From Sistotremastrum niveocremeum HHB9708 (taxonomy: Eukaryota; Basidiomycota; Agaricomycetes; Sistotremastrales; Sistotremastraceae): DNA of 64,000 nucleotides. Below are positions 34,164 to 62,353 of this stretch, in pieces. Below the pieces are notes generated by a model. It saw nothing but the letters and a program-made list of their open reading frames with translations, did no database searches and was not told the DNA's origin. The stretch covers positions 394,552 through 458,551 of the forward strand of contig KV419399.1 of the NCBI GenBank assembly GCA_001630475.1, read 5' to 3'. Numbering within the stretch: the stretch's first letter is position 1; each line of letters starts with the position of its first letter. Made by a program: the position numbers and the translations under genes.

Positions 34164-35052
34164 ATGTCTGGCTATCCATTCCCCATTGCTTCCCCACAAG
34201 ACTCTGATCCCCGCCGCAGTACGTCTCTACAGCGGCATCATTGTCGGCAGTGATACCCTAATTGCGATATTGTGCCCCATTTTCTGTACCAGCTGGCGCT
34301 CATCAGTTCAGCACTACTCAGAGCACCCATTCTGAATTGGAAAATTGGGACGGTGAGATTTCTGCCCCTTTTACTATGATGAGTACGCTCATCATAAAAT
34401 ATAGGTCGCCATTACGTCGGAGGCAGCCTCCAAGGTGGGGGTGCAGCAGTCGGATTCCAGGCAGGACGACATCCGAACGGTGCCTTCCAATCTGCTTTCA
34501 GTGGTCCCCCTCCCCCTCCCGAGGAGAATCAAGCGCATGCCGGTCCCTCCAAGCATGTGAGCCTATTTCATTCAATCCCGGAAATAAATCTAATTGGCAT
34601 CGACTTATTCTCCAGGGCAAGACGCAAGCACCGAAGCCGAGGACTCAGTCACAAAAGGACGCTGAGAAACGAAATAAGAAGAAGCGGAAGAGTGTCTCTG
34701 CTAAGCTAAACAGAGCTCTCGAGGAAGCTAGAATAGAGCGGGTCCCCCGAGGCCAACCAGATATGATACGCTCGGCAGCTCGTGTGATCCGGTAAGTGTA
34801 TCAACTTGAATGCGATCGATGGAGTCATTGATAATCGTGTGGAGAAAAACTACGGCAGAGTGTCAATTGTTAAGACGCATTATGCGGAAATTGCAGACTG
34901 ACCCAAGATCAATCAATTCACCTGCCTACCACCTGGCCCTGGCCTTCCCTCACGACTTACAGATTGCATGTGCGAACATTGACAAAGAGGACGAAGAGGA
35001 CGAAGGGAACGAGGAGGAGAAGGATGAGGAGTCCGATCAGGACCTTTGGTAA
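34164..35052 (+). CDS. Helix-loop-helix-like family protein 1 (acidic tail)
   Basis: Not a named gene. Five exons (34164-34218, 34293-34352, 34405-34556, 34616-34791, 34845-35052) encode 216 residues. The N-terminal half is low-complexity (MSGYPFPIASPQDSDPRR, then Gly/Pro-rich). Residues ~100-150 hold a basic run EKRNKKKRKSVSAKLNRALE, a short Pro-containing loop and a second helix QPDMIRSAARVI. Intron 4 (phase 2) falls exactly at its end. The C-terminus is strongly acidic (DKEDEEDEGNEEEKDEESD). The arrangement resembles a divergent bHLH protein with an acidic activation-like tail. Three relatives lie at 47.5, 51.0 and 61.2 kb. DNA binding is inferred, not shown. Confidence 0.65.
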
Positions 35053-37330
35053 GGCCCACTGCCTTCTTGAGATTATATGCGCATTCGCTTATTCCATGAT
35101 TTCTAGGGCCGACGATATGATTGATTGAAAAGCCTGCCACTGGATCAGTACTTCGCTCTGAACAAGCTGGTACATAATCTCATATGCATTGTTATACTGA
35201 TTTGTGAACGATTATCCTGACCATTGCGTCCAAATGTACATGTAAAAACGTAGCTTTTGACTGAATTGATTGATTCTGTCCTTCTCTGTTTAAGACTGAT
35301 ATACGACGCTGAAACTTATTGCCACTCGATAGCTGACTTTCGGCAAGACTTTCGGTTCACAAGCGAAGCGAAACACCTGTTTGTTCTTGTTGTGGCATCC
35401 GAATTTCACCTCCTGGCCTTAATGCTTTACCGGCTTGGACACCTACAAATGTGAATGGAACCTCGAGGACGTTCGATGTGCGAGTGTTTGAGGCCGCATG
35501 AAGCCTGCATGAAAGCTAGAAGATTCTGAATCAAACAGAAACTCATCGTCGGTCGCGCTCACTCAATCCGCCGTCTCGTTATCGGTTGCCTAGCTCGACA
35601 TTGAATCAGGAATAGTTCATGGATGGACTACTTCGTCTCTCTCAAAAACCTCGTCTATGTTCCGCTCCATCGATACGGATTACTTGATGTGGATTAGCGC
35701 AATCCACGAAAAATTTCCACGCAGCGTCTAAAGGAATAGGGTTATCTGGCAACCGGTTTTAGACTCGTAGCGCAGGGCCCTAATAAAATTAGCCGCAGAC
35801 CGCTCTCCGTCCTGGCTACAATGCGACAAACTTCTGTGACGTCTACTCCGTCTTCTGGTACCAGTACGAAGGAACCCCGTCAGCTCTCCGCCTTATCTCA
35901 TTGCTTTCAGCTTCACCCACTCCGAGGTCCGGAAACCCTGGAACTCTCCCGTAACGCTACAAAGACGACGTCGCACTGGTTTCAAACATAACCAGAATGC
36001 ACGTGCTCATTCGTCATTAATGGGAAGACATGTACCCTCATCTGTGGTCTTATCGTGCTGGAACACTATGCGACATTTTAAGTTGCGTCTATTTATTGCT
36101 CGTGACCGACCCCTGGTGACACCCTGATGATCGAAATTGATCGACTTCTAAGGCGATCTAACTTGATGCGTCGTAGCTTCGATTGCTTGAGACTTTACCG
36201 AATGTCTAAGTATACCTATATTTGGAATTCCTTATCATCAGGCGTCGTGTCACTGGCAACTGCTGGTACTATTACTTTCGTGGGCCAAATTTGCAATTCT
36301 TTCCCTGTGCTTATGGGCGATCTTGAGGCCGCTGGATCCGAGACTAACGCGTGGTCGGTGATGAAACATTTACGATTAAGATAAGTGGCGTCATCCTCCA
36401 TGCGATAAGTAGAAGCACTTTTCAGACTATGAGGTCGTAGCGTAGCTTATACATAAATTCAGCTCACTTGTCTACTTGCAAATTTTCAAATCGTTGGTTC
36501 TAGAGATAAGCAGAAGCTTCGTTGACCGTCTTCCCCTCCTCTTGCTCAGCTTGCTGAGTAGAGGGGGTTTTGTCGAAAGATGATCGTGCAGGGTCTCTTG
36601 CAAATCGCCTTTTATGGAGTCATTTTCTCACACTGGCCTCTGCGTACACCCCGTTTGGTGATTTATTCGTACGGTCTCCCGAAGTTTGGCCGACCGAGAC
36701 AGTCGTATTTGTGCTTTATTTGGCCTCACTGTTTCTTCCCGCATCTTTCTACTTCGTGTCCTCGCTCGCTGAACAGGATTCGCTTCTATCTTATATTAAG
36801 TACCTCGACGATTGGGGTTATGTCTTTGTTGCTACATTAGAATATATTTCTGAGTCCAACGTTGTTGCTTGCTTCGTCAGTTGTCCAATAAATTTTGAGC
36901 CTAATGAAATGAGACAGATGTGGTTGATAGGGATTGTATTATACAAAATTTGATTGCTAGACTCGCGACTTACGATGACAAAAATTTATGTGCCCGAAAA
37001 TTCAGAGAGGAGGGGACTTAGGCGCGCAAGCACCGCTACCATCCAATTTATGTGGATATTTCAGGACATTTTTTGAGAGGTGATCAAATATATGCAATAC
37101 ATTACACCAATGAGGTTCTTAAGAAAAGAAAATCAAGTTTAAAGACGTTGCAAACAATGACGTGGTCAGAGTTGGGATGTCGAGTCGATCGTGGTACCGA
37201 TGACGTAGGGTCGTTGTATGCGGTTCACAAGAAAGATCTGCCAGTCGCCGCCCTCACGAACAACGTTATCGCCCCCACTTTCTTGTTCACAACCCTCACC
37301 AAGAATTTGAATTACCCTGAAATTTAGCAG
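35053..37330. other. Gene-poor stretch
   Basis: About 2.3 kb that looks more AT-rich by eye than its surroundings from about 36.1 kb. Open frames at 36127-36384 and 37052-37327 (plus) have no supporting features. No repeat was identified. Confidence 0.4.
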
Positions 37331-38680
37331 ATGTCAAGCCAGACCATAGCACCAAATTCCGGGATTTCAGACTGCTGCGTATGTCGACGATCGACGTCGT
37401 CGTGAGGTTACATGGGCTCGACTCTCTCGACTGACACTCGCTTTTTTCTTGTTAGCTTTCAGGACACCTCCATGTAGGAAACCCGATTGGTCAAGAAGAG
37501 ACTCTCGGCGGAATGACCACCTACACTACTGGGGACGTAAAGTAAGAGCTCTTGGATATCAGATCATGAGTATATTTTAAGATCGATCTGAAGGAATAAG
37601 AACAAGAGCATCCTGTTCATTACAGATATCTTCGGCTACCACCTCACGGTATGTCTTCTAGACCAGGGCAACGCACTAGCATCTGACATTGACTGAGATA
37701 GAACACTCGACTCCTTGCCGATGAATACGCAAAGGCCGGTTTCTACGTATATGTTCCTGACCTGTTTGACGGAGACTACGTCCCGGTAAGTCAGATGAGC
37801 GTATCCTGTCATTCGGGTCGGAGTCTTGATTAAGCCTTGACAAATTCTGTCCATTTGAAATTCTCAGGAGTACGTGCTGGATGTGGTTGCGCCCAAGGAC
37901 ACGGCTCCCCCAAAAAGCTTCACCGAGAAAGCGTGAGCGGCATAGACAGACATTCAGAAGCAGGAGTGGCTCACTGATCAGAACAGACTGAGCACCGCAA
38001 AGGCACCTTTCGATCTCGGCCCATGGGTCGTCAAACACAGAGAAGCAGTCTCCCTCCCGTTGATTAAGAACGCGGTGGAGGCAATTAGAGCAGACCCTGC
38101 GACGGGGAAGTTGGGGTGCGTGCTCTTGTCCTGAACTAAGCCTCTTGCGGATTGAAATGACCTGGTTGTTCCGAATAGCGCCGTGGGATTCTGTTGGGGA
38201 GGTCGATATGCGATTCTTCTCGCGCACGCCGGGAGCCAAGTCGAGTGAGTGTGTGGCACAATGCTCCCCAGTTTCACCGGTTGCGACGACGACGACGAGA
38301 AACTGACCAGAGCGATTATTTTCGTAGTGCTGCTGTGGCCCACCACCCGTCTTTTCTTGGACTACCGGATGACGTCGAACCGGTTGCAAAGCCGCTTGCG
38401 GTTACGGTTGGCGATAAAGACAGGTTCGCAGGCTGAATTTTATATCCTGACCCGAGCATGTGGGAGACTGATGATATATTACAGCATGCTCGATCAGAAA
38501 GGCGTTGCGCAGCTGAAAGAAATATTGACGAGCAAAGCTGGAGTCCCGAGCGAGGTGACGGTGTATCCTGGTGCTCATCATGGGTTCACGGTTCGCGGAG
38601 ATCTGAACAACGAGACTGAGAGGGAACAGAAGGAGCAGGCAGCAGAGCAGACTATCGCTTGGATGCGGAAGTACCTGTAA
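37331..38680 (+). CDS. Dienelactone hydrolase family protein
   Basis: An alpha/beta-hydrolase of the dienelactone hydrolase (AIM2-like) family that hydrolyses lactones or related esters in aromatic-compound breakdown, probably cytosolic. Nine exons give 274 residues, close to the family norm of ~245-270. Seen directly: ILFITDIFGYH early, YVYVPDLFDGD, the nucleophile Cys in VGFCWGGRYA, the acid Asp in TVGDKD and the His in GAHHGF. The Cys-Asp-His triad is complete. The introns are 52-83 nt and every phase agrees. The start at 37331 gives SGISDCC followed by the family's G-x-P-x-G loop. No regulatory motif was recognised. The true substrate is unknown. Confidence 0.92.
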
Positions 38681-39059
38681 CTGGTTACTTTGGTAGCGAC
38701 TTGCAAATTGAAGAGTAGAGACGAGAGCAACTCCGACGCGCGACCCTTGCTTGCGCTAATGGCACTCAACCTAGAGACCAGCGACCGATGGGCATCCAAA
38801 TGCGACACATCCCTCAGTTGCTTCAGTACACTGACACACTGGCTGTGTAGAGGGGCCGCCCTGTCTCTCAGAGCCCGTTATCTCTGCTCTTCTGCGACTC
38901 GCGACTCCTTAAAATCCTACGGTGTTCAAGCTGGTCCTTGCCGACGGTCTGCTAAGCAGGATTTTCTTCTAAAGAGCTTCGCTGCTCCTATTCTATTCTG
39001 TCTCTCTTTTCTAGTCTCTCTTTTACGTCGCTCAGCTAGACTGCACGCTTGAGCTTGTC
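38681..39059. other. Promoter region of the membrane protein gene
   Basis: 379 bp. A CT-rich strand from about 38980 to 39045 lies just before the ATG, a common fungal promoter feature. No gene. Confidence 0.4.
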
Positions 39060-40653
39060 ATGTCCGGCATCGTCTTTGTCGACGATATGGATTCATCTAT
39101 TCACTTTGATCACAATTGGGGCTCGATGTCCAACAACAACAATGCCTTCAAGAAGACACTGCATGGAACCACGGTCCACAATGCGCAGATGACATATACC
39201 TTTAACGGTGCGTCCACTATCCAAGTCTTTCTGATCCACCACTGACTATCAATCAGGGACGGTAAATCATCCCATTCCAGCGCATGACCACATCTGACCA
39301 CAGCTATAGTCGATTGGAGTCTTTGGAGCAATTGTTCCAGGTGTCCCGGCCAATACCTCCCTCGCAGTCTTCCAGGTCGACAACCTTCCCCCTTCCCAGC
39401 TCTTCCAGCCACCCGACGTCACCTCCGGTCTCTTCAAGCATCCATTCTTCGGGTCTCCTTTGAAGAACAACGGACCACACACGCTCACGGTCACAGCGAA
39501 GGTCCAGAACCAACCCCTCTTTCTCGACTTCCTCGCCGTCGGCGGTGGGAGTTCCAACGATAACCGAGAGAGTGATGGTGGATCCTCAGATGGTGACAGC
39601 GACTCCGGGGACGGGGACGACGGAGATGGCGGAGGTGGGGGGAATAATGGCAACGGAGGACACGGCAATGGAAATGGGAATGGGAACAGCAACAGCGGGA
39701 ACGGTAATAATGGAAACAGTGGAAACGGGAACGGTGGCGGGAACGGCAATGGCAATGGGAACTCGAACAACGGTGGAAATGGCAATAGCGGCGGCGGCAA
39801 CAGCAGCTCCAGTGGGACGAGCAGTGGCAGTGGGAGCGGAGGAAGTCACAACACAGCGCAGAGCGGCAGCCTTGGCAATTCAACAACTTCTTCGACGACT
39901 TCATCACTACCCCTATCCAACACTGCCACCTCTTCGACCGGGACACTATCGTTTCTTCCCTCCCCAACTGCCACCGGAAATGTGGGGATCGCCCCACAAA
40001 ATCCTGCATCGAGTCTGCTTCCGCTCAAACCCGCTCAACCTGCTATTATTGCAGCCAGCGTGGTTGGGACTGTTTTTGGCCTTGCTTGTATCGTTTTCCT
40101 CGTGTGGTTTCTTCGTAGAAGGCGGATGAAACGTGATAAGCAGGACAAGAATCGACAACAGGGTGAGCATCCTCTCTACTGAGCTAATTTGGTTTCCTGA
40201 TATTGTACATACGCAGCCGATCGAGAAGATTATGCGTCAGGTACGCCGGCTGTCGGGGCTACGATTGTCAAATACTTACATGCCGGGAAAGACACGAAAT
40301 CGCCAATGTCTAAAACGGCATCGTCTTCCGAAGAGTTCTCATCCTTCATGCCTTCACTTCCCTCCCGTATATCGATGATTCCATACTCGTTGTATCCTTT
40401 GACGCCTCGTACCGGCCGAACGCAAGTCCTCGACTGGAATGGACGGCCGAAAGGGCTTCCTACAGTTGTTTATGACCCTCCTGCTGGTAGGCAAAATCGA
40501 AGCACGACGGACGCCTCTCTTGATATATGGGTTTCGGGCCCTATCTCGCCTGGAAAGAGTTTCAGCGTCAGTCTACCACGAACACGAACCCACAGTTCCG
40601 CGTTCTCGAATACGACTTCTCAGCTACCACCACCACCTCCTGAGAAACTATAA
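39060..40653 (+). CDS. Single-pass membrane protein with lectin-like ectodomain and Asn/Gly repeat stalk
   Basis: An Agaricomycete cell-surface protein of unknown role. Four exons (39060-39207, 39257-39261, 39310-40162, 40217-40653) give 480 residues. The N-terminal ~150 residues form a beta-sandwich-like ectodomain: IVFVDDMDSSIHF, then a TYTFNGTSIGVFG strand pair typical of this family. A stalk of about 75 residues made of Gly, Asn and Ser repeats follows (about 39600-39850), then Ser/Thr-rich sequence. One transmembrane helix (AIIAASVVGTVFGLACIVFL) is followed by RRRRMKRDKQ and a cytosolic Ser/Pro tail. No signal peptide is evident. Exon 2 is only 5 nt. A probable relative lies at 42582-43728. 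Confidence 0.85.
39257..39261 (+). other. 5-nt microexon (GGACG)
   Basis: Exon 1 ends AAC-G, the microexon GGACG lies between AATCAG and GTAAAT, and exon 3 opens TCGATTGGA after CTATAG. Joining them reads N-G-T-S-I-G-V-F-G, the conserved strand motif of the family. Joining exon 1 straight to exon 3 breaks the frame. The flanking introns are 49 and 48 nt, both normal here. Confidence 0.8.
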
Positions 40654-42581: not shown

Positions 42582-43728
42582 ATGACGACAGCGACGAATT
42601 ATACGACTGTCTCGATTCCATCTTCGTCGAGCGATATCGTGTATACTCCTGGTCAATGGAGTCAAAACGGGACTTCTATGTGCTCCACGAGTCAAGGAGC
42701 GACTGCTTCTCTGAACTTCACCGGTAGGTTCCATTTTTTGCATTCTCCAGCACAGTTTCTAAAGCTCAATAGGCCTGTCCTTTTCTCTCTCTGGCAGCGT
42801 CACACTTCCCCAATCAGCACTCCCTCAAATTCCAGACGATAACCAATCACTCCTCGTGGCTACTATATCATTCGACAATAATACCTTGCATAAAATCGCC
42901 TTCAATGCCTCTCTCGGTCCTGCAAGCGTTACGCAGTCTCCATTATTTGCAATGCCACAGTTCGCCGCAACTGATGGACCGCATGTCGTCACGTTCACGA
43001 ATGATTTTGACGGAGTCGTGACGTGTCTGGATCAAATCAATACCACATCCGTTCTTTCATCATCCCCATCCTCGTCTAACTCTACCACGGACTTCGCCAC
43101 CCCTTTGCCGCCAGTGGCGAGTTCCAAGAATGGATCGAAGACAAAGGTTGCTATCGCAGCTTCCTTATCGGCTTTCATTGTCGTCCTGCTGGTGGCCATG
43201 ATCTTACTGCTCATCAAAGCGCGGAAATATCGACGAGGGAAGTTGATAAGCGCATCAGATGAATCCGTCCCCGAAATTGAACCGTATCGTAAGTCCTTTC
43301 GCTCCAGATCAACAAACAAGTAATCTGAGGCATGCCTAGAACCATCGCCAACCAAATCTTCTATCGCCCGCCGTCTCTCATATTTCCGTCGTACCTTAGG
43401 AACCGACAACGCTAATTCACGACCTAACGGAGGTCGTGGACCTAGTACTCAAGGCACAAGCACCGTCGCAGCAAGCTCGATTCTTCCCAGCGTTATAATG
43501 GCTCCCAGCACGATATCGTATCTACCAAGTAGCCGCGGGGCACCGACCACGATCGGCAGACCAGGAAGTCAATATCTTGGAACTGCATCGGAGAGAATCA
43601 CTGTTAGCGAGTTGAGGAGAGATCCCGTTGAAGGCCTGTGTACCTTGGTGAGTCTGGATTGGTATTTTCACGCGGAAAATCGTCGGTTTATTAAATTTTT
43701 GATCCCGTAGACGCTCGCTAATCCATGA
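42582..43728 (+). CDS. Single-pass membrane protein with lectin-like ectodomain, second copy
   Basis: Four exons (42582-42723, 42773-43288, 43340-43647, 43711-43728) give 327 residues. The ectodomain has SSDIVYTPGQWSQNGTSM and SLNFTGLSFSLSGSVTLP, matching the strand-Gly-Thr-strand layout of the 39060-40653 protein with only weak identity. It carries several N-glycosylation sites, a Ser-rich stalk, one helix (VAIAASLSAFIVVLLVAMIL), a basic stop-transfer (KARKYRRGK) and a cytosolic Ser/Thr tail. The model lacks a signal peptide and probably lacks its true N-terminus; the first exon may lie upstream. The last exon codes for only TLANP. The role is unknown. Confidence 0.7.
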
Positions 43729-44906: not shown

Positions 44907-47101
<2,195 letters not shown>

Positions 47102-47491: not shown

Positions 47492-48485
47492 CTAAACGCC
47501 CCGATCAGCGTTGAGTGTGGTTACATTGGAGTATTGCTCAGCTGCTGCGTCAGCTTCTAATCGTTCTGATTCAAGTTGTGCAATTTGTGCATCTAGTTTT
47601 TTGATCCGGATCTCCATTAAATCTGTTTCTTCGGATTCCATCCTGGGAGGAGTAAAGTATGGTAAGATAGGTCGTTGATATTGACTGACCTGATCAGATC
47701 AGCAGCGTGAGACGCAATATCAGCCCTGCTGGGAGGAGGAACTCGAGGGTATCCGCCGATCTCTGCAAGGGCCCTGCGTATAGATTCGAAGCTACCACCT
47801 AATTTTGCTTTGGCTTTTTTCGCACTTCTCAGTTGGCTATCACGTCTATCTGCTGCTTCCTGAAGCGTCGACTTGGTGGAACTTAGCCTATTTTCTTCCC
47901 AATCAGGATCCGGGAAGTTAGCATAGACGCTTGGAGTTGAGGGGGGATGAGGGGGGTTAGCCGTATTGACGGACTCAGCGAAGTGATGTTGATCTCGCTT
48001 CCCCTGATCAGCTTCACCATGGCTTATCTGAGCTACAGATAGGTGGATGAGTAATTCCCATGGGTGATGAGTATTGTGAGACTCACCGGACTCATATAGT
48101 GAGTGAGGAAGTTCCAAAGAGGGCTGCCGAATCAGGTTTCGAATGGACGACGAAGGATCGGTGTATGCATCATGTGCAGGATCTTTCAGTGTTTGAGGAT
48201 TTTACGCGCAATGACAGCCCGCGAAGGCAGCAACGGAACACTCACCGGCGACAGGGGCCGTACTTGAAGGTGAAACCGGGGAAGATAGAAATAGTTGTTC
48301 AGGCCCAGGGCCTGTGGAAGCCTGACGAATCGGACTTTGGGACGTATACGCTACGCTTGTGATTAGCCCGTTACAATTGATGGCATCGCGAAAATATCCC
48401 CTTACAGGACGTATCCTCGTCCAGATCGCGTCGTCTCTTGTTCGAGCCCTGGACACCTGGTACAGGCCAAAGACTTGGGTCCCAT
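47492..48485 (-). CDS. Helix-loop-helix-like family protein 2 (leucine-zipper-like tail)
   Basis: Not a named gene. Five exons (48485-48406, 48355-48246, 48182-48087, 48032-47690, 47642-47492) give 259 residues. The N-terminal 155 residues are low-complexity and Pro/Ser-rich. Residues ~157-210 contain a basic helix (SAKKAKAKLGGSFESIRRAL), a Pro-rich loop (GGYPRVPPPSR) and a second helix (ADIASHAADLIR). Intron 4 (phase 2) splits AGG at its end. The last exon is a coiled coil with heptad Leu/Ile (MEIRIKKLDAQIAQLESERL). The plan is that of a divergent bHLH-zip protein. The first exon is the least certain; its phase differs from the other members. Confidence 0.65.
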
Positions 48486-48857
48486 AGAACAACTGTGAAA
48501 TATTATAGGGCTTCTATGAATAGGAGCAGAATCCTATCACCATATAGCAGACCTTGGATGCCGTTCAAACTTCGGCTTCGTGGTCTCATCAAATGCTCGG
48601 CGTAGTCTTCATCCATGGAGCTCGGAAGACTCTCGCAATCCAATACCTGTCAGTCCGCTTGAATCTTTCGGGCCTTCAAATAAAGACAAAAGGTAATTGC
48701 CTTAGAGATCAGCCCAATCTCATCATCATGGGTCAAGACAACATCGGCGTCCGAACACTACCGTTCAATTGAACCAATCCTCAGCATTTTTTGGGGGAAT
48801 GATGACCTTGTCTTCAGCTCACGTTCAAGTAGTGATCCATAACTTCGTCATATATAG
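48486..48857. other. Intergenic gap
   Basis: 372 bp between two minus-strand genes. No ORF or motif is supportable. Confidence 0.3.
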
Positions 48858-50055
48858 TCAGGCGCTGATTGCTCTGTTGATATGTGTGAGCTCATAGATA
48901 ACAAGAGTTTTGCTCCTCACTTCCTCTGCATGCGGAAAAGTGTCGATTGCGATGGACCGCCCGTTATCGTCGTTGTCCTGATCTGGGTTTTTTGGCAGAG
49001 TGTGTGGACCGGCACCACCCTTGAGTCTTCGCAACGGGGAAGCCTTCCGTTCTTTGATCCGCCACCCCTTGAGAAACACAGTCTGATCGCGATCGGAAAA
49101 TATGGAGTCTTCGTTCCAGGGGACCTCCTGTCGAGGAGGCCGTGCTCGAAGACTGTCTGGTCCTGACTTACTGCTCGCTGCGTGCTCAAACAATCTTTCG
49201 TTGGACAGCGAGATATCCGCGATCCCCTGGACCTGCATACCCACTCCGAATTGAGAGTAATTGCTGTCAAATGTGCCCACCTCCCACTCTCGTGTGTTGG
49301 AACATCCAGTGATGAAAACTAGATCCGAAAGGGAGATATAGTCTCTCATTATCTCATGAATCACCTTCTTCCACAGCTCGAGATTGCAGACGATATATTC
49401 CGCTAGGGCACAAGAATATCTTGCGGTCATGTCATATTTTATCCAGTCTCGAGCCCGCAATGCCGCGCTGTGGTAGCGTGACCTCGAGAAGGAGAAACTC
49501 GCCCCGAGTTGAAGAAGACTGGCGGGCCTAGGAGCAGAGTTCAATCATGTCATTGACGTATCTCGAACTATTTACTAACAACAAGCTACTTACGCTGAAG
49601 CTGAAGCTGCAGCTGCTCGACTTCGGTGAGTTCTCCCAGTGAAAAGTTTTGGGCCGGACTCCGATTGAATCGAGAGCAACAAATTTGTGCTCCAGTCCAT
49701 GCCTGCTTCGAACGGCTGGAAGGGTTGGAAGCCATCAGGAGGACTATGGGCGTCCCTCTGGTTCTCAGGAGCATCTTTCGACAGCATGACATTGAATAGC
49801 CTGATAAATCGGCCATCGCCGCTGTCAAAGCTTTCAGGGAAGGTAAGAGATAGTCCACAGAGAGAATCCTTACTCTATATAACCCAAATCCCCGGGAACC
49901 AGGACGTACGTATTGGGACTGGGTGTCCATGAAGGGAACCCGTGTCCATGATACAAGAGGTGTTGTGCAAATATTTGAGCAGGCCCAGCAGGCCCTTCGA
50001 GTCCCGTCGAAATGAAGACTCTGTCATCTACTAGTGTCAGTGCTTGTGAGCTCAT
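48858..50055 (-). CDS. Uncharacterised Agaricomycetes-specific family protein
   Basis: I recognise the family but it has no known function. It is expanded in mushroom genomes. Three exons (50055-49874, 49830-49594, 49527-48858) give 362 residues. Family marks are GPAGPAQIFAQHLLYHGHGFP near residue 25, WTPSPNT then VPGDLGYI, FNVML, PPDGFQPF, ARDWIKYDM, LVFITGCSNTREWEVGTF and GGAGPHTLP late in the protein. The end after EEVRSKTLVIYELTHINRA does not match the family's usual leucine-rich last segment (a LLDYILE-like motif), so the C-terminus may be truncated or a last exon missed. Intron 1 is only 43 nt. It sits between two helix-loop-helix-like genes on the same strand. Confidence 0.75.
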
Positions 50056-51040
50056 GGGAGACCGAAAGCTGGGGTCTGGCAGTGCAGATGTGGGTGAGTG
50101 CATTTGACATATATACCAGCAGTGCACGCACCCAGCGTCTGTAGCAGCCCCGCTTTTGCGCGCTTCAGAATTCATTGGTGTTGACAAGAGGCTAATAAGG
50201 CTATGGACCTATGGTGTCGCCCTGTAGGAGTCTTGGTGTGATGTGGGATCCGGAGGTGCTTTGGCTTGTCGCTTTAATCGCAGGTACGGGATGCGTCGAA
50301 GTCCGGGATCAAGGACAGCCCCAGTAATATGGAGGGTATTCTAGTTGTAAAAATACACCGAACATGGTACAGAACGGGATAGTACCTGCTTATGTAACTC
50401 CTCAGGCTTCGGCACTCTTCCGACTGGCGGTCAGAACCTAACTTCACAGCTTCATCCACGATTCACGGCCTCTGATCGGGATCTCCTCCAGACTTTCCAC
50501 TCCCCTCTGCTTACAATATCGTAGAGTGTAGCAACCTGAATGCCTTTGATAGCCTATCGATCAGGCATCCATTGACAATTCTGCGTTTGTCGGCAGCTTC
50601 CGCGCTCCGAAAATCGTCCTCCGAGTGCAGCCAAAGTTGGCCAAAGTGCAGCCAGGAGTGCAGCGGTGGAATCCTCGCTAACTGAACTTTTTTGCTGATA
50701 GTAGTATTTTCGCCTCGGTTCTGTTCTCGGTGTTCTGACTTGGCTTACACAATACATCCTCTTACTAGATACATTCAAGAAGGAGTCAGTTGATAATTTC
50801 TCACAGGCTCTCAAGGAACCTGCCATACGTATATAATATACAAACATCGGCTAGCCTCAACTTTCCTTTTACATATGCCGATCATGATTCATGACTCCAG
50901 ATATATAATTTGCTCCCGATACACGTCCCAGTTGACCCAAGCTTCGCGATGGATTCTTGGCTGTGTGGCCAAGGCGCATCCGGTAAATCCCATGAGTTAT
51001 CGAGCTCAATTGATCCTACTCCTATCGTGGTCCGTCGATT
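50056..51040. other. Intergenic stretch
   Basis: About 1 kb. A short imperfect repeat of GTGCAGCCAAAG-like units lies near 50615-50660. No gene. Confidence 0.35.
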
Positions 51041-51867
51041 TCACGGCAAGCCTAATCTATCTCGTAAGGCTCGACTCTCACGCCGTGCGGTGCAAAGTTC
51101 CGCGTGGAGTTCTCTGAGTAGATGAATGGAGTGGAGTGAGTAGACTGATTGAGTCAGGTGAACAGGCTTACTCGAAAATATCCGCGGTAAAAGTCAGCAC
51201 ATCAGCTTGAGTCCTTGGAGTCTTCGGGTATCTTCTGATGAGTACACCCATGAGTCGTTTCCATGCATCAGTCAACTTCTTCTTCGCTTTACGCTCTGAT
51301 TCAATCTGGGCAGAACTACGATGGGTGTTTATTGAGGGCGAAGGGGCCACTTCCGCTGCTGAATAGATCGTGGCAAGTCGAGAACTGTGCGGCATATGAT
51401 CGTTTGGTTCAAAGAATGCCTGGATCTGAGCGCCAGAGCCTCCCGGAATAGGATCATAGTGTTCGCTGGGATGATCGTCATAACCTGGATGCACGGTCGG
51501 CAGACTCAGTGGATAGACTGGACGACTATGAGTGATGCTCTTAGGAGACAGATAGTATGGGTTCTCTTACAGGTCGGGTTCATTTCCGGGCGCCAGTCTC
51601 CCGGGTGTGGTGAACGCCGATGAGGATAGACTGATGGTGGCATCGCATTTCCAGCAGCGGAAGGATACCCTACGTAGATGCCTCAGAATACACATATTGA
51701 AAGGAATGAGCGATACCTACGCTCATCAGGGTCGAAACTTGGGGCAGTTCTTCTGCTTTCAGGATTTTCTGGGGTTTGAGATCCGTAGGGCGGATCTGAA
51801 AAGTCATCATGAGCAAGCACAGTACTCCACACAGTTGGAGAATGAGTGAACTAAGAGGATAATTCAT
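51041..51867 (-). CDS. Helix-loop-helix-like family protein 3 (shortest member)
   Basis: Not a named gene. The best model has five exons (51867-51852, 51795-51721, 51669-51571, 51484-51172, 51113-51041) and 191 residues with intron phases 1,1,1,2. Residues ~126-170 give the clearest helix-loop-helix reading of the family: ESERKAKKKLTDAWKRLMGV, loop RRYPKTPRT, then QADVLTFTADIFEELHAEL. Intron 4 (phase 2) falls at the end of helix 2. The tail (ARRESRALRDRLGLP) is a short amphipathic helix. Exon 1 (16 nt, donor GTTCAC) is the weakest part; the real start may be elsewhere upstream. No canonical E-R-R basic DNA-contact triplet is present. Confidence 0.6.
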
Positions 51868-54800: not shown

Positions 54801-56416
54801 AGATCCGCTCTCACAGTGCTCGCTATTATAAGAAGCATCTCAGTCGCCGTGACCCTCACCGACCCAATTCATGCCCTTGGAGGATACAACTCAAGTTCGT
54901 TCGTATGACGAGGCGTTTCATAGGACTTGCGGCTATTTCACATAAACTGTGCTATCCTGTCGTGTCTACCTACCAGTATCGAATCAGGGAACCAAGACCG
55001 CTTCCCCTGGGATCTTCTGGTCTCCTGTCAGCTTGATAGTGTCGTAGCTGATAACTTCCGTCTTCATATGGCACGCATGAATGTTAGTTCTGTCGAAGAA
55101 CCACCGGCCAGGATTGGACCTACCAAACACATCCATAATCACTCCGTTCCCTTTGCTCCCATCAGACGCCATGTACATCATCGATATAAATCTTGTACCG
55201 AGACTAGTGGACACAATTGGCCAGGAATCAAAGTCAGATATATATCATAGTCTTCAGCTATCTCAATGGGCGGCGACGGTGTAGTGAATGTCTCAAGCAA
55301 GAAATTCGTAGGCCTAGGCAGCAATATGGGGAAGCCCAAGTTGAAAAAATATTCTGAACCAAATATCTGCAAACAACGAGGCTGTACTTCAACCACCAAC
55401 CCCAGCCTCGACATTGCAGCAAATTGTTAGCTCTATGCAAGCGTACCTCTAGCCTTAGGTTACAGTGCTGATACATCGTATTTCGCCCTTTTTGTCGAAT
55501 CGCGGATGCCTCAGTGAACGCGCTATGAATTCAACGAAAGGGACCGCGGCGGTTGATGCGAGATCTGGTCTGTCCGTTTACTGTAGGTTCAAAGACCCGT
55601 GTCTCATATCTTCGACCCTTGGCTAATAAATCTTCATAGCACCTTCATATTATGATCGTGGCACTCGATGCTGCTCGGATTTATTGCCGTCACTTCCGCA
55701 AGCCAACTGCATGTGCTTTCCGTCCATCAATTCGTCAAGGGGTGGTATGAGCCAAGCAGATAGAATCCCGTGCACGCCTTGCATCACATGTGCATTTCAT
55801 TTACGATTGACTCATGCACGGGATTCTTTGAGCCCGGTTTGGCCTGCTATGGCACCAATCACTGATCGCTAGCACATGGCATTGACATAGGCGTCAGATG
55901 TAGTCAACAGCCAAGCATCTTCACTTACCACCCTCATTCGCGGCCGCGAGTCAGGGGCAGGATGAGTCGCATCAGCCCCGCCGTTGAAAGTCAGATGCCA
56001 CATGATCAGGATGCATCGACTCTTACCCAAGACGTTTATCGTACTCCATTCGCGCTTTCATTTCGCTTGAGAGCAAGATCAGTCTTCTTTTCGGGCGCTT
56101 TCGTATGCCTGAAATGGCACCCTCGAAAAAGCTACTACAGCGTATATTGATTTCCATCCTACACAACAAATCTTTGGTGAGGTCATCATGTAATGTGAGA
56201 AGGCCTCTTGCTGATTTTGCTCGTAGCGCCTCCGGTATTCATTCAATGAAGTTGAACACCTGAGCTGTCAGAATGCGAATACTTTACGTTTACTCGTCGG
56301 TCATGAAGTCTGCGGGGAAGCTCCACGCGTACCAGCACCCGAAAATATATGCTCTCAGCATATAAATACAGGACGTTGACCTTCAGCTTTGGCATCCACC
56401 GCCGTGTTCAATCCTT
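51868..56416. other. Gene-poor stretch
   Basis: About 4.5 kb. Short frames occur, such as plus 52856-53080 and 54499-54681, and two minus frames at 55414-55178 and 55214-54984 (the latter with DVFGRSNPGRWFFDRTN). They look faintly protein-like but show no domain and no clean splice join. No transposon ends or repeats were found. Confidence 0.4.
56361..56368 (+). promoter_or_regulatory. TATA box (TATAAATA) of the GH25 gene
   Basis: A canonical TATAAATA sits 49 bp before the ATG at 56417, leaving room for a very short 5' UTR. Strong TATA boxes suit inducible secreted enzymes. Confidence 0.6.
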
Positions 56417-57465
56417 ATGAATCTCATCCTTTCAATTCTCGTCGCAATCACTTCGCTCTCCTCCGTCTGCAGCTATCCTCTGGAGAAACGTGCCAACCCC
56501 AAAGGTATCGACGTTTCCAGCAACCAAGGGCCTGTCAACTGGTCCAAGGTTAAATCCAATGGAATCTCGTCCGCGATTCCCCTGCTGCTCGCTATCGATC
56601 CGCTGATGCCAACTCCAGTTTTGCCTATGTGAAGGCGACGGAAGGTACATCTTACACGAACCCCGACTTCGCGCAACAATACGTCGGAGCATATGATCAA
56701 AAGATCATTCGAGGTGCATATCACTTCGCGCGCCCTGGGTCTTCGAGTGGCGCAGCTCAAGCCAAGTATTTCACCGATCACGGAGGAAAGTGGTCCGCTG
56801 ACGGACTAACTCTTCCCGGGGCCGTAGACCTTGAAGGTATGATCATGTTTATTTGTGATCTCCGGCGCGTTGCTGATTTACGACTTAGCCGGGTGTTCGG
56901 GACTGAGCCATGCTGCTATGGTATCTTGGATCAAGAGCTTCAGCGATGAATATCACTCGATCACGAAGAGGTAATACCGTCAACCATGGCTGTTTAGTAT
57001 GACGATCTTACTCGACTCTGTAGATATCCTGGTGCGTTATTCGAGAGTTGATTCTAATGCACTCAAATTGATATCTCCGATAGTCATTTATACGACCACC
57101 TCCTGGTGGCAGGAATGTACCGGAAACACCAAAGAGTTCGCCTCTACTAGTCCTCTCTGGCTTGCTCATTGGGCTTCGTCTGCTGGAACGCTCCCGGCCG
57201 GTTGGACGTAGGTCTGCTCTCCAGTTGTGTTTAGATAAACCAATGACGAAGTCACATCTAGCTTTTACACGTTCTGGCAGGTATGGCCATGAGTCTCAGT
57301 ATAATATTAACCGCCCCTTACGCAACCTTTTGTAGTACGCGGACAGCGGCCCTAATCCAGGCGATCAGGACGTCTTCAATGGCAGTTTGACGCAACTCAA
57401 GAAGTAAGTCATTTCCTCCTCGAATATTGCGCAGCTGATTATTCTACAGGCTTGCTACCTCCTGA
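56417..57465 (+). CDS. Secreted GH25 lysozyme (muramidase)
   Basis: Cleaves the MurNAc-GlcNAc bond of bacterial peptidoglycan, for defence or feeding on bacteria. Eight exons (56417-56568, 56619-56836, 56889-56970, 57024-57031, 57084-57207, 57262-57280, 57336-57403, 57450-57465) give 228 residues. The signal peptide MNLILSILVAITSLSSVCS is followed by a KR kexin site. GIDVSSNQG and AYVKATEGTSY match the family start, GAVDLE carries catalytic acid residues, and TSWWQECTG and TFWQYADSG follow. Exon 4 is only 8 nt (57024-57031) and restores KRYPVIYTTTSWW; exon 6 is 19 nt. Such bacterial-type muramidases are often gained by transfer in fungi, but the seven introns show long residence here. Confidence 0.92.
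57024..57031 (+). other. 8-nt microexon (ATATCCTG) in the GH25 gene
   Basis: Flanked by CTGTAG and GTGCGT. With it, AAG-AG|A-TAT-CCT-G|TC-ATT reads K-R-Y-P-V-I, the expected GH25 strand before YTTTSWW. Without it the frame is lost. The neighbouring introns are 53 and 52 nt. Confidence 0.78.
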
Positions 57466-58997
57466 ATGAATTGGCCGATGCGAGCGTACTAAGTTACCTT
57501 TGGCCCTTTGGGTGCTGTTTACAATGTATCCTATGGACTTGATGTTGAAGATTTGATTGCATATGTCACTTCATTGCTGTCCTAGAGTATTTAGTACACT
57601 GCTGAATTTTGTCACTTAGTTTTTCTTCTATGTTAACGGAGGTGCTTGATCGATATCGAGAACTGATCAAGCCGCAAGCCGCTCGGCGTTATCCGTTCTC
57701 GATGATCTTCAGTTTCAAGAGTCCGTTTGTTGACATTCTGTGCGGCTCAGCAACGATATAGTTTGCTTATATTGGAGCGATTCACGGCCGTTGATGACAG
57801 CGCTAGCTCTAGAGAGCAGGATGTTTAGACCGAGGAGTCTGAATCAGAGGAACGTCAGGCGTGCTTCCGCCGCGGCTCAATTCAAGTTCGGACTCGGAGC
57901 AGGTGGAATGAACTACGCGAGGCACACGTGCAGAGGATGGCCTGTGCACGACTTCAGAGTATATAAGCCTCGCTCCAACACTCTCTTTTCCTTACCACTC
58001 TGGCCTTTTGGCTTAGATCAAGTGTAGTATCTGTTCTTAAAAGCATAATAGCTTTTATCTGGGCACCGCCCAGTTATGTCTATTATCTAATTTTTGTCGC
58101 CCCGTCTTTCGAGCTCTGCTTGCAACTCGGAGGACAAGATGACCTTGCTACTGCACTACCGGCTTGCGTCGTCAGGGGAACCCCTCGCTTTTCTCTTTGG
58201 GTTTTGGGTTGGATTGTCATGAGACTTTCTGATTCTCTGCATCAAACTGAATTGTGTTCTTTTTCGGCGTAACACACTTTTTGTGAGCCGTATTAGCCTA
58301 TTAGGCTTAAGCTTTGTCATTAGTGCCAAGTAAGTTAGTTTAGACAAATGTACATCCTGGAGTCAATATTATGCTTGATGTATTGAGTTTAACGCTCTCC
58401 CATCGATATTAGGTGCCTCTGTTCTCGTGCCTCGATCTCAATGATATAGTGCTGACTAACTGTCGAAGGAAGGAGCCTTGTGAGCTGAAAACTAACTTGC
58501 TGAAGTGACGGTGGGATGCAGCAGATCTCGATACGTACACTGGCTGTCGGGGAATTCATTCTTAATGAAATTGCTTATGTGAGCACGCGCCACTGGCGGG
58601 CTGACCATCTCACACATCCGGCAATCCCGTCCAAGACAAAATATATACATTTGTAGGTCCAAGGCAGTCGATTTCCTTCACTGAAGGCATCGAGTCGGCG
58701 ATCGATAGAAGGTATCTGATAAAAAACTTGAGCCTGTTTCTCACCAGGCGCAAACCAGGCGGGTTTTTGGGATCCGCCCTTTCGAAAGGAAGATAAAAGT
58801 CGGTCATGTAATCAGCTCCGAATCGGATACATGACATACCAGGTGACTTTCAAGGACTTTCCATTCAGCAATGAACCGGTACCGATTTCCCTACACCAAC
58901 GAAACTCAAGCTACTCACAACACCCGATATAATCCCTTCCTCAGAACCATCCCTTTCAACATACTATCGTGCCTATTCATACTTTCAGACAAATACG
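57466..58997. other. Intergenic stretch
   Basis: About 1.5 kb. A minus frame at 58837-58610 (75 codons, begins MSCIRFGADYMTDFYLPFER) reads protein-like and faces the DUF1857 gene, but no family or continuing exon was found. Confidence 0.35.
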
Positions 58998-59512
58998 ATG
59001 GTTTATACGTTCGCTGTCTCTCTCCCCATCCCGCCTGAGCTCTCGAAGCTTCAAGTTTGGAGGGGGATCACACTGAAAGCTCGTCAGCCAAAACTCTTCA
59101 ATCCTCGAATCACGCGAGCGAGAGTTTTGTCCGAACAATGGAGTGGGTTGGTGCGAGAGATAGAGATCAATGGGATCCGCGAGACTGAGATAGTCGAATT
59201 TTTTGAGCCATGTCTGGTGGGCCGCTCGATGCTGTCTCGAAACACGACTGTCATCAATTAATTCCCGCCCTCACCCTATAGCAAATTTTCAGGAAAAACA
59301 GTGGAACAGTCATCCACTATATGATCAGTGATTCAATGATTGGAACTCCCCCAATAATGACTTTCGTATTTATGTGTCGATTTCCGGGAGTAGTTGAGGG
59401 TTCAGTAGAAGAAACTGCGAAGGGCGAACAAGCGAAAGGCCTTGCAGTTTCATTACCTGCGACGTTGGATAAAATCAGGAATCTGGTTCGAGACGGTGTA
59501 ATCAAATCGTGA
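58998..59512 (+). CDS. DUF1857 family protein (SRPBCC/START-like fold)
   Basis: A small soluble protein, predicted to hold a hydrophobic ligand in a helix-grip cavity; its role is unknown. Two exons (58998-59216, 59282-59512) give 149 residues, the family norm. The start YTFAVSLPIPPELSKLQVWR is the typical N-terminus (VWRGI, then KARQP, FNP). Exon 2 begins QIFRKNSGTVIHYM and includes FMCRFPGVVEGS. The acceptor CTATAG (not the nearby TTTTCAG) was chosen because it keeps the GTVIHYM frame. It lies next to, but convergent with, the HAD phosphatase. Confidence 0.87.
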
Positions 59513-59623
59513 AGACTCAGGCTCACGTATGATGTCCTCTCTACGCAAGAGCTGCTTTTCTATCTCTATGACGTACCGGATCTATGTTCTATAAACTTCA
59601 TTCGACGTAAATCAATGTAGCTC

Positions 59624-60727
59624 TTAAACGCGTCCTGATTCTAATGCTTCAGCCACTGTCTTCTCTCCGTCGACTACCGCTTTGACCAGACCCAAAGCAC
59701 CGGTGAAGTCTTCAAAGAGAACGTGCTTGATTCCTTCTCTTCGGCAGTAAGCTGCCAGGTCGTTTTCGCCGCCAGGTTTCTGCTTGACGAAAAGAAGATC
59801 GGCATGGCGAGCAGCTGACATGTCTGACACTCCGTCGCCGAAGAAAAAGAGCGTTGGTGGTGACGGGAGTTCCCGGTACGGTAATATTGCTTGCGATTTG
59901 TCGTGACCGAAGCCGCTGGATTTGATCGATGAGCATCTTATTTTATACTGAATTTAAAAACCGAAAAACCTTGAAGGATGTCTATATTGAATACTCCATT
60001 TTCCGTCTTGTTCGATTTTGACGTCGTTGGATATTATATCAATTTTCGCGGCTTCTTCCTCTCCGATTAGATTAGATAAGATTGCGCGAATAAGGGGTGC
60101 CATTCCACTATGGAAACTGAGTATATTCAGTCGGTCATTTCCTTGACTTGACACTGACCTGGAAACGATCACGACTGGGATATCGTTGGCCTTACACCAA
60201 TTATAGAAATCTTTGAAGCCAGGGTCCAACGATATTTCTGTGTAAATGCCTGAGTGCGAGAAAAGCGAATAGCATGGTATTTACTGACGCGTTTTCAATA
60301 CGGCTTTACACTCTTCGAAATCATGGTTTTCCGCGACACTGGCCAACATCTCTCGGAAGGCATCTCTTTGGGATAGCGGTTACTGAGGCCTCCGCCAAAG
60401 AGCTGAGCAGAATTGAATTCACCTGAATGTGACATGTCCGGCTAATATCTCGAGATTATCAGCTCTTCGTTTTTCAGGCCCGAATCCCAGTGTATCGGTC
60501 AGATCTGAAAATCACTTCAATCTTACACATGTACAGGTCTGATAAGTTGAAGAGTTTACAATCGTTGGTATCTCTGTTCGTGATAGTGCCATCCCTGTCA
60601 TCCGGCGTTATTTTTTGCTTGGGCTAGATCATGCCACGAACCAATCCGACAACGCGATGAACTTCTTGTTGAGATGAAGCGGAGGATATGGGAGGGTGCT
60701 CTCTGGTATCTCTGAAGTCGAGCTCAT
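59624..60727 (-). CDS. HAD-superfamily phosphatase (PHOSPHO/MtnX-like)
   Basis: A magnesium-dependent phosphatase of the HAD class I group, probably acting on a small phosphate ester. Seven exons (60727-60642, 60594-60560, 60504-60423, 60365-60289, 60237-60159, 60107-59970, 59915-59624) give 262 residues. Catalytic motif I, LSDWDGTITNRDTND, is restored only when the 47-nt intron 1 is removed inside it. Motif II is VIVSSGM. The substrate-region motif is GFGHDKSQAI. Motif IV is FFFGDGVSDMSAARHADLLF. The C-terminus ends VAEALESGRV as in fungal relatives. The start gives MSSTSEIPESTLPYPPLHLN and then KKFIALSD. It is a well-conserved fungal protein. Confidence 0.9.
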
Positions 60728-61165
60728 CGAACTTGTCGGTAGTTCGATGGATCCAGAAAGTCAAGCTGTGGCCGACTTTTAGTGATCTTTCCGAAATGCC
60801 GATTCAATCCATCAGTGACGTAATCATCAAGAAGCTCGGATATATCGGACATTCTTTTCCATTGATTTACTATTTAAGCCAAGATTTAAGCCTGCTCAGT
60901 AATTCTTGCACCAGTCTCAAAGTTGGTCCGGAGCGTAAGGTCGTTCTACTAATGTACTTCTCTTCTCTACATGGATAGGTCTCGCAGCATTTTATTATCT
61001 CATCAACGTGCCAGTGATAGTTGGTCTCAAGATCAAATTGGAAGATAATATTCAAGATATGGCATATTGACATCCGTATGTATCGAATGGGCAGACAAGA
61101 AAGCGTCAATGAGTATATAGGCGCATATCAGCGCGGTATTGAAGATTACAAGAAGCATCAGATGC
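60728..61165. other. Promoter region of the HAD gene and 3' region of HLH-like gene 4
   Basis: 438 bp. No gene or clear motif. Confidence 0.3.
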
Positions 61166-62353
61166 TCAGCATCGGTCAGAAGCCATCAGTTTTCCCAATA
61201 AAATTGACTCCCTCTCGGCTCGCGCTTGGGCTATCGCCTCGAGAAGCCTAGCTTTTTCTGTCAATCTACTGTCCAGCTGCATATAAAGCTCGATGATTCG
61301 GTCTCTCAATTTCACTTGCTGATCAAGATCACTGCACAAGGATATTCAGGTCTTGATTCGGGTGGTGTTGAAATACGAGCGACTTACACAAGGGTTTCCG
61401 TCGCGAGATTCAAGCGATCGGCCATAAATTCTGGGACGGCGCACTCGCCTTCAAGGATTTTTTCCAGTCCCGTATCCAGTAGGTTGAAAGCAAAAGTCTT
61501 CCTATCCTTGCAGTTTACTTCAGCCTGAACCTGTTTAGGATTGCGGCGCGGTTTCTCGGTATTCTCAGGCTTTTCTTCGTCGAAAATTCGTCTTTTCTTG
61601 TTAGGATGTTGGTCGCGAAGTTTCGGCTGAGAAGTGGCGGTATGAGCGGCAGCTGTCTTATGTTCGGTGGAAGAGATGTATGCAACGTTTGGGAGAGATC
61701 CCCGTGGATAGTTTGGCCCCTGAAAGGCAAGAGAAAGGGATGTATCAGAAGTCCCTCCATTGTATCCAGCATGATGGTGGAGGATGTCTTCCGGAAGCCG
61801 AGCGAACTGAGCGACGATGGGAGGGGAAAGGTTTGGAGCGTGAGAAGGGTTTGAACCTGCGGTCAAACGCATTGAATGCTCTGTAGTGTTTGGAAAAGTA
61901 TTATGAACACGGAGTGGCGAGAGGACACGAAACACACATACCCACAACACTCATTGCCTGAGGATATGCATCTTTCGTGGTCAAAGCCGGGACCCGTTCA
62001 TCATGCTGATTGAATACCAACGGAGGAAACGTGGATATGACTCGAGGTGGAGGAGGAACGAAATCAAAACCAGGATTTCCTGTTCCCGCCAACGTATGGA
62101 AAGTATTATTCATAGATGCATCTGATTAAGAATCATCAATTGATGCCAGACAAAGAAGAGGTGGCATCTATACCGTTGATAGCAGGCCGAAAAGCAGTCT
62201 CGTCGGTGACGACGGAAGTGTGCAGATTGTGAGACGTAGCGTAACCTGATGTTGTATGGATTAGTATAAAAGGTTTCCGTAACAGGACAAAGAATATTCC
62301 CTACTTTTTTTCTTTGCACCGGTGCCAGGCCCTTGATAGTTCGGTCCACTCAT
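61166..62353 (-). CDS. Helix-loop-helix-like family protein 4 (long coiled-coil tail)
   Basis: Not a named gene. Five exons (62353-62305, 62245-62174, 62121-61942, 61880-61388, 61331-61166) encode 319 residues with phases 1,1,1,2. The start MSGPNYQGPGTGAKKK resembles member 1. The middle is Pro/Ser-rich with a nuclear-localisation-like KKRRIF and a basic run KPRRNPKQ. Residues ~228-266 hold KTFAFNLLDTGLEKIL, a short loop and ADRLNLATETLVDL, at the same place relative to the phase-2 fourth intron. The tail is a long coiled coil (RIIELYMQLDSRLTEKARLL). The helix-loop-helix likeness is weakest here, but the gene plan supports common origin. Confidence 0.62.

What the first reader, a model, noticed from the sequence alone, without database searches (positions are those of the whole stretch)
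34164..62353. Four diverged paralogs of an undescribed helix-loop-helix-like gene family, interleaved with other genes
Genes at 34164-35052 (+), 47492-48485 (-), 51041-51867 (-) and 61166-62353 (-) share a five-exon plan, a low-complexity N-terminus, a basic-helix/loop/helix segment, a phase-1 second intron, a phase-2 fourth intron at the end of helix 2, and a tail that is acidic in one and amphipathic or coiled-coil in three. Sequence identity is so low that single searches may miss the kinship. The pattern fits a rapidly diversifying local family of dimerising regulators, perhaps pairing with each other.
Basis: partly seen in the sequence, partly recalled or inferred. Interest (0 to 1): 0.82.

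Follow-up and report, generated by a model that had tools for sequence, protein, structure and literature searches.

The report
Fast-diverging fungal bHLH-zipper gene cluster
Four hard-to-recognise neighbouring genes of a fungus belong to a local group of at least seven, and a genome-wide set of at least sixteen, bHLH-zipper regulator genes that all lack an arginine which most proteins of this kind use to hold their usual DNA site.

Summary
The window is Sistotremastrum niveocremeum. A profile of ten members outside the window ranks the four genes' domain exons 1-4 of 1426 window ORFs (28.1, 25.6, 16.2, 14.8 bits; next 5.0). They are bHLH-leucine-zipper proteins: a profile of the seven cluster genes finds only Max (8) and USF2 (1) in the PDB, a reversed control of 14 members finds no bHLH, and AlphaFold gives helix-loop-long helix for g4 and helix-loop-helix for g1. 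The set is larger than reported: seven genes in about 44 kb (three beyond the window), at least 16 in the genome. All sixteen lack the basic-region arginine (position 12 is Cys, Ser, Ala or Asn); 15 of 16 models have a phase-2 intron at one column of helix 2. The SREBP-like gene of this genome (Tyr12) shares that intron place and phase, hinting at an SREBP-like origin; the tree does not settle this. Hits outside the species were S. suecicum and two metagenome proteins. Most likely: dimerising transcription factors with altered DNA specificity. Partners and target DNA are inferred.

The parts
34164..35128 (+). g1 (SISNIDRAFT_482937): exons 34164-34218, 34293-34352, 34405-34556, 34616-34791, 34845-35048, 35107-35125 plus stop; intron phases 1,1,0,2,2; acidic C-terminal tail
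   Evidence: Exact mapping of deposited protein P0014; blind model agrees for exons 1-4 but takes a later acceptor for exon 5
34616..34791 (+). g1 domain exon: basic region, helix 1, loop, helix 2 up to the phase-2 intron
   Evidence: 14.8 bits in leave-window-out profile; AF2 helices 100-129 and 136-166 of P0014
47492..48616 (-). g2 (SISNIDRAFT_482942): exons 48553-48616, 48406-48492, 48246-48350, 48087-48182, 47690-48032, 47492-47642 (with stop); phases 1,1,1,1,2
   Evidence: Exact mapping of P0001
47690..48032 (-). g2 domain exon (basic region, helix 1, loop, helix 2); zipper follows in 47492-47642
   Evidence: 28.1 bits in leave-window-out profile
   Evidence: Hand model and exact mapping of P0010
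51172..51517 (-). g3 domain exon
   Evidence: 25.6 bits in leave-window-out profile
61166..62353 (-). g4 (SISNIDRAFT_451059, deposited partial): exons 62305-62353, 62174-62245, 61942-62121, 61388-61880, 61166-61331; phases 1,1,1,2
   Evidence: Hand model and blind model agree; the junction of the last two exons matches P0013
61388..61880 (-). g4 domain exon; helix 2 plus zipper (63 residues) continues in 61166-61331
   Evidence: 16.2 bits in leave-window-out profile; AF2 helices 112-140 and 150-212 of P0013

Best explanation
The four genes are members of a lineage-restricted, fast-diverging set of bHLH-leucine-zipper genes. Shown by computation: kinship of the four, a basic segment continuous with helix 1, a loop, a helix 2 that runs into a zipper in most members, a shared intron, and absence of the arginine at bHLH position 12 in all sixteen members found. 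Inferred: the proteins dimerise (with themselves, each other, or the fungus's ordinary bHLH-Zips) through helix 1, helix 2 and the zipper, and the dimer lays its basic segments in the major groove as Max or SREBP dimers do. Because a Glu9-Arg12 salt bridge cannot form, binding is expected to move away from the plain E-box, by analogy with the Arg-to-Tyr change of SREBPs. The low-complexity N-terminus would carry regulatory or activation segments. Members with few basic residues (g4, g5) may act mainly as partners that modulate others. The set probably arose from an SREBP-like bHLH-Zip gene and spread by tandem and dispersed duplication.
For: Kinship: leave-window-out ranking 1-4 of 1426 ORFs, and leave-one-out tests of 14 members against 1000 shuffles each. 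Kind: PDB profile of 14 members, nine best of 29 rows all Max, best E 2.1e-4; profile of the seven cluster genes, 9 of 9 rows Max or USF2, best E 0.0041; reversed control, 0 of 8 rows bHLH. The C1 member passes PF00010 with 25 bits, cut-off 20.7. AF2: g4 helices 112-140 and 150-212, 97 residues at pLDDT 90 or more; g1 helices 100-129 and 136-166. Register: Glu9 in 14 of 16, Lys/Arg13 in 15 of 16, Leu/Ile/Val23 in 15 of 16, Leu/Ile/Val/Met27 in 15 of 16, Arg12 in 0 of 16; of seven ordinary bHLHs of this genome compared there, Arg12 in 6 and Tyr12 in 1. Phase-2 intron at one helix-2 column in 15 of 16 models (columns read by eye on the alignment); same place and phase in the SREBP-like gene L017. 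Stronger conservation of the domain in two dispersed members: C1 gene 69/70 against 101/129 before it, C28 gene 48/50 against 75/100.
Against: Pfam PF00010 detects none of the four window genes even at E 1, and only 3 of 14 members at E 1. With the four window genes alone the Max hit is weak, E 0.17. The reversed control reached E 0.0039 with a designed coiled coil, so E-values of that size are not proof in themselves. hhalign to five ordinary bHLHs: probability 43.5, P 2.4e-4. The tree of 24 domains puts the three ordinary bHLHs beside g2, g3, g6 and the C79, C1 and C30 genes in a weakly supported fork (82/81), so it does not show the sixteen to be one clade. Several links that found members were weak (E 0.013 to 0.17). 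Foldseek of the g4 model found no bHLH structure, which says little for a lone pair of helices. Positions 1-13 hold only 5, 4 and 3 basic residues in g1, g3 and g4, so DNA binding of these is not assured. The L017 intron uses a weak donor that my predictor did not call. No expression or binding data.
Confidence: 0.82

Rival explanations
1. HLH-only modulators: the window genes dimerise with ordinary bHLH-Zip factors and keep them off DNA (Id-like action), having lost DNA binding.
For: Arg12 missing in 16 of 16; only 5, 4, 3, 3 and 4 basic residues at positions 1-13 in g1, g3, g4, g5 and g6. [quoted passage not shown] its region may be counted over a longer stretch than mine.
Against: Glu9 in 14 of 16, Lys/Arg13 in 15 of 16 and Lys/Arg15 in 16 of 16 are kept; SREBPs without Arg12 do bind DNA (PMC6329520, passages).
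Confidence: 0.25
2. Ordinary E-box-binding bHLH-Zip factors that are merely diverged in sequence, with no change of specificity.
For: PDB neighbours are Max and USF2, which are E-box binders (recalled).
Against: Arg12 absent in 16 of 16, and position 5 is Gln 9, Arg 6, Ala 1, never His; Glu-13 and Arg-16 in plant numbering are described as essential for the E-box (PMC4312455, passages).
Confidence: 0.12
3. A mating-type or self-recognition locus whose diverged bHLH paralogs pair in allowed combinations, as homeodomain pairs do at fungal MAT loci.
For: Tandem diverged paralogs with zippers; in g4 the basic-HLH-zipper half differs more from S. suecicum (92/103 identical) than the part before it (106/108); one dispersed member on contig C13 lies about 4 kb from an STE3-like receptor.
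Against: STE3 matches lie on C13 and C35, Homeobox_KN matches above cut-off on C69 and C14, none at E 1 on C6 (the typical homeobox PF00046 was not searched); g4 is 94% identical between the species; no population data.
Confidence: 0.07
4. Decaying duplicates without function.
For: Very low identity among paralogs; no S. suecicum relative of g2 at E 10, and none of g1 or g3 among the eight hits.
Against: Open frames across five to eight exons with GT-AG introns, the same intron in 15 of 16 models, relatives of g4 and g7 kept in S. suecicum.
Confidence: 0.06

Closest known systems
Max / USF bHLH-leucine-zipper proteins
   Same: Basic segment, helix 1, loop, helix 2 and zipper in the same order and register; the only PDB proteins matched by the cluster profile at E 10
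   Different: Arg12 replaced by Cys, Ser, Ala or Asn in 16 of 16, position 5 never His, no Pro at position 28; below Pfam recognition in the window genes
Fungal SREBP-like bHLH-Zip (L017 in this genome, Tyr at position 12)
   Same: Arg12 absent while Glu9 is kept; phase-2 intron after the same helix-2 residue; Tyr to Cys or to Ser is one base change (genetic code)
   Different: Position 12 is small, not Tyr; His5 not kept; loop of 5-12 residues by the count instead of the long L017 loop; deposited members are only 121-293 residues, some partial
Id-type HLH proteins
   Same: Some members (g4, g5) have a weak basic segment
   Different: Glu9 and Lys/Arg13 kept in most members, and a zipper follows helix 2, which Id proteins lack (recalled)
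bHLH genes of other mushrooms, e.g. 12 in Sanghuangporus baumii (PMC11855202, passages)
   Same: About a dozen Pfam-recognised bHLH genes, like the 11 loci above the PF00010 cut-off here other than the C1 member
   Different: Sixteen further divergent members with their own signature were found here (one of them, on C1, above that cut-off)

Membership tests
bHLH-Zip superfamily | Two helices joined by a loop | tested here: met
   AF2 of g4 and g1; g2 and g3 only by alignment to the family and to Max
bHLH-Zip superfamily | Basic segment continuous with helix 1, in the Glu9 to Leu23 register | tested here: met
   Glu9 14/16, Lys/Arg13 15/16, Leu/Ile/Val23 15/16; helix 112-140 of P0013 covers it
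bHLH-Zip superfamily | Zipper continuous with helix 2 | tested here: met
   g4: one helix 150-212; g2, g3, g5, g6 by sequence only; g1 short (136-166); the C16 member stops before it
bHLH-Zip superfamily | Recognised by the curated Pfam HLH profile PF00010 | tested here: inconclusive
   0 of 4 window genes at E 1; 3 of 14 members at E 1, one of them shown above cut-off. A limit of detection rather than a structural definition
bHLH-Zip superfamily | Dimerisation and DNA binding | not testable with these tools
   Needs protein work or complex prediction
Canonical E-box-binding bHLH | Glu9 together with Arg12 | tested here: not met
   Arg12 in 0 of 16 members; 6 of 7 ordinary bHLHs of the genome compared have it
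SREBP | Tyr at position 12 | tested here: not met
   Position 12: Cys 6, Ser 5, Ala 4, Asn 1
SREBP | Transmembrane segments after the bHLH-Zip | not tested
   No prediction run; by eye the short tails of the window genes show no long hydrophobic stretch
Mating-type locus | Linkage to homeodomain or STE3 genes | tested here: not met
   No PF05920 or PF02076 match at E 1 on C6; PF00046 not searched

The most novel reading that the evidence does not exclude
An SREBP-like bHLH-Zip gene that had already lost the Glu9-Arg12 salt bridge seeded a lineage-specific expansion of at least 16 genes, more than doubling the fungus's bHLH set, with a seven-gene cluster that forms a closed network of heterodimers with new, non-E-box DNA specificities and a diversifying dimer interface.
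Probability: 0.3. Interest if true: 0.72.

Novelty: new variant of a known kind. Interest (0 to 1): 0.52.

Why it matters
Transcription-factor sets that expand within a small lineage and drift below Pfam recognition are easily filed as orphan genes. This one keeps a clear fold and an intron mark, so it shows how a bHLH-Zip can be remodelled, and it offers a natural series of position-12 variants (Cys, Ser, Ala, Asn, beside Tyr and Arg in the same genome) for testing how that residue sets DNA specificity. The seven-gene cluster is a compact system for testing whether duplicated zippers evolve private pairings.

Tried and rejected
Pfam on the four full models: no HLH hit. Foldseek and VIA-align of the g4 model: one vimentin chain, no information; no bHLH structure was listed. 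phmmer of P0013 alone against the PDB: no hit at E 1. Mating-type linkage: none on C6. Pattern search for the basic motif: 10 matches, 7 known members plus 3 others, against 3 for the backward control; the three extra ones do not extend into the domain. Two weak matches beyond g7 (L041:9445-9789, 8.3 bits, E 0.42; L045:3007-3135, 6.4 bits, E 1.6) were not accepted as members. A tree of 24 domains did not resolve whether the cluster is one clade (one group in 8% of 200 bootstrap trees) nor whether the sixteen exclude the three ordinary bHLHs; the RCK-type subfamily was one group in 93%. My blind gene predictor gave doubtful 5' ends for g3, g7 and the C30 gene, wrong last exons for g3, and a later g1 exon-5 acceptor than the deposited model. 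Papers: the listings of searches show no title or abstract on this family; passages only were read of PMC11855202, PMC4312455 and PMC6329520; the other papers were seen as listings.
Full report
WHAT THE WINDOW IS. A database search with g2 returned one protein, its own deposited form, SISNIDRAFT_482942 of Sistotremastrum niveocremeum HHB9708. The genus is filed under the order Sistotremastrales, Agaricomycetes (this species is not among the 14 names listed there). The window is contig C6:394552-458551 of a 34.7-Mb genome that could be searched.

THE OBSERVATION. I rebuilt the four genes by hand, with a blind splice-and-coding predictor, and by mapping the deposited proteins back by exact translation. 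All four genes are in the database. Hand and deposited models agree on the end of the domain exon and the start of the next exon in 4 of 4. The blind predictor agrees on the domain-exon donor in 4 of 4; it differs in the exon-5 acceptor of g1, and in the domain-exon start and the last exons of g3.

KINSHIP. Identity between the four domains is 18-30%, and own-genome searches with the g2 or the g3 domain piece found only their own exons. Chaining from g1 led to contig C16 (E 0.17), from there to C13 and C6:472 kb (E 4.1e-4 and 0.14), and on to C1 (PF00010 search), C30 (E 0.013), C79 (E 0.13), C28 and three places on C39 (E 7.1e-4 or better). Some of these links are weak alone. The joint tests are not: a profile of the ten members outside the window, run against all 1426 window ORFs of 30 residues or more, puts the four genes first to fourth at 28.1, 25.6, 16.2 and 14.8 bits, with the fifth ORF at 5.0; and in leave-one-out tests each of 14 members scored above all 1000 shuffles of itself.

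A LARGER CLUSTER. Profile scans of neighbouring 10-kb stretches found two more genes just beyond the window: g5, C6:462435-463927, and g6, C6:467085-468319, both on the minus strand. With the C6:472-kb gene (g7) this makes seven members in about 44 kb. In window 1-34000, in C6:374552-394551 and in the fetched stretch from g7 to C6:498551 nothing scored above 8.3 bits. The genome total is 16, a lower bound. A pattern search for the basic motif recovered seven known members and no convincing new one.

WHAT KIND OF PROTEIN. A profile of 14 domains matched 29 distinct PDB sequences at E 10; the nine best are Max (1r05_A, E 2.1e-4), USF2 (E 0.13) and Cbf1 (E 0.29) follow among unrelated rows from E 0.03 on. 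The seven cluster genes alone matched nine sequences at E 10, eight Max and one USF2. The four window genes alone gave Max first but weakly (E 0.17). The 14 rows reversed gave eight hits, none a bHLH, the best a designed coiled coil at E 0.0039: E-values near 0.004 can come from coiled-coil composition, but the pointing to Max depends on the true order of the letters. PF00010 recognises the C1 member above its cut-off and 3 of 14 at E 1, and none of the four window genes. AlphaFold2 on alignments of 17 database proteins gave for g4 (the deposited partial protein) two helices, 112-140 and 150-212, with 97 residues at pLDDT 90 or more, and for g1 helices 100-129 and 136-166 with weaker tail helices. 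g2 and g3 were not folded. Foldseek was uninformative.

THE SIGNATURE. In the bHLH register position 9 is Glu in 14 of 16 (Ala in g2, Asp in the C1 gene), position 13 Lys or Arg in 15 of 16, position 15 Lys or Arg in 16 of 16, position 23 Leu, Ile or Val in 15 of 16. Position 12 is Cys 6, Ser 5, Ala 4, Asn 1 and never Arg, while of seven ordinary bHLHs of this genome compared there six have Arg and one, L017, has Tyr. Position 5 is Gln 9, Arg 6, Ala 1. Tyr at this place is described as the hallmark of SREBPs, where it prevents a salt bridge with the conserved Glu and allows a non-palindromic site (PMC6329520, passages); Glu-13 and Arg-16 of plant bHLHs are described as essential for the E-box (PMC4312455, passages). 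Equating those plant positions with 9 and 12 is my own step.

INTRONS AND ORIGIN. With phases left free, a phase-2 intron falls at the same helix-2 column in 15 of 16 models (columns compared by eye on the alignment); the C16 gene stops before it. Six members (C13, three on C39, C28, C79) have a 21-base micro-exon next, one heptad of zipper, then another phase-2 intron; the deposited proteins contain these residues in five of the six, that of C28 does not. In L017 the splice that I found to keep the zipper in frame is also phase 2 after the same helix-2 residue, with a weak donor. In L018 and L019 the donor lies earlier in helix 2, and in L014 and L022 helix 2 is unbroken. With the missing Arg12 this suggests an SREBP-like ancestor. 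The tree does not settle it: the three ordinary bHLHs fall beside g2, g3, g6 and the C79, C1 and C30 genes in a weak fork, so that the sixteen are not shown to be one clade.

DISTRIBUTION AND RATE. Searches with two family profiles returned 8 proteins each at E 10: S. niveocremeum, S. suecicum and two metagenome proteins. S. suecicum has relatives of g4 (P0016), g7 (P0017; both list a contig of 87,637 bases), the C1 gene (P0012) and the C28 gene (P0006). None of g1, g2 or g3 was among the hits; incomplete annotation could explain this, and of the three only g2 was searched alone. From the basic segment on, identity is 69/70 (C1) and 48/50 (C28) against 101/129 and 75/100 before it, but in g4 it is 92/103 against 106/108: the dimer half of g4 changed more than the rest. 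This is one gene pair. The search needs shared 5-residue words, so distant relatives in other fungi are not excluded.

HOW IT MOST LIKELY WORKS. By analogy with Max and SREBP, two chains pair through HLH and zipper, and the basic helices enter the major groove. Loss of the Glu9-Arg12 bridge makes a shifted specificity likely. Dimerisation, DNA targets and roles are inferred. Of ten ORFs scanned between the family members three have a Pfam match above cut-off (malic enzyme, GH25, AtaL); they suggest no common pathway.

VERDICT. A true and somewhat surprising expansion of divergent bHLH-Zip genes in one lineage; a new variant of a known kind. The listings of searches showed no title or abstract on it in the held library. 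UniRef names for two members here and one in S. suecicum already say 'BHLH domain'.

Noticed in passing
window 57992-58180 (+): U2 spliceosomal RNA gene, 120.3 bits, between g3 and g4.
   Followed up: no
window 58875-59258 (+): AtaL-family domain (Pfam PF08982, 46.6 bits).
   Followed up: no
window 39310-40179 (+) and 42763-43320 (+): Long ORFs of neighbouring genes that look by eye like membrane or secreted proteins with low-complexity parts; the first has a weak match to an ErbB1 transmembrane model (21.2 bits, cut-off 27.1), the second none.
   Followed up: no
window 48861-50023 (-): ORFs of a gene between g2 and g3 without a Pfam match.
   Followed up: no
G000:C13:527520-528595 and C13:532282: A dispersed family member lies about 4 kb from an STE3-like pheromone receptor; further STE3 matches lie at C13:610-627 kb.
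   Followed up: partly
G000:C39:81.8, 119.2 and 121.7 kb: A second group of three members, of the RCK-type subfamily, within 40 kb.
   Followed up: partly
L041:9445-9789 (-), about 4.6 kb beyond g7: Possible degenerate further member, 8.3 bits, E 0.42.
   Followed up: partly
L034, L035, L036, L037, L038, L032: Micro-exon of 21 bases, one heptad of the zipper, flanked by two phase-2 introns, in six members; missing from the deposited C28 protein.
   Followed up: partly
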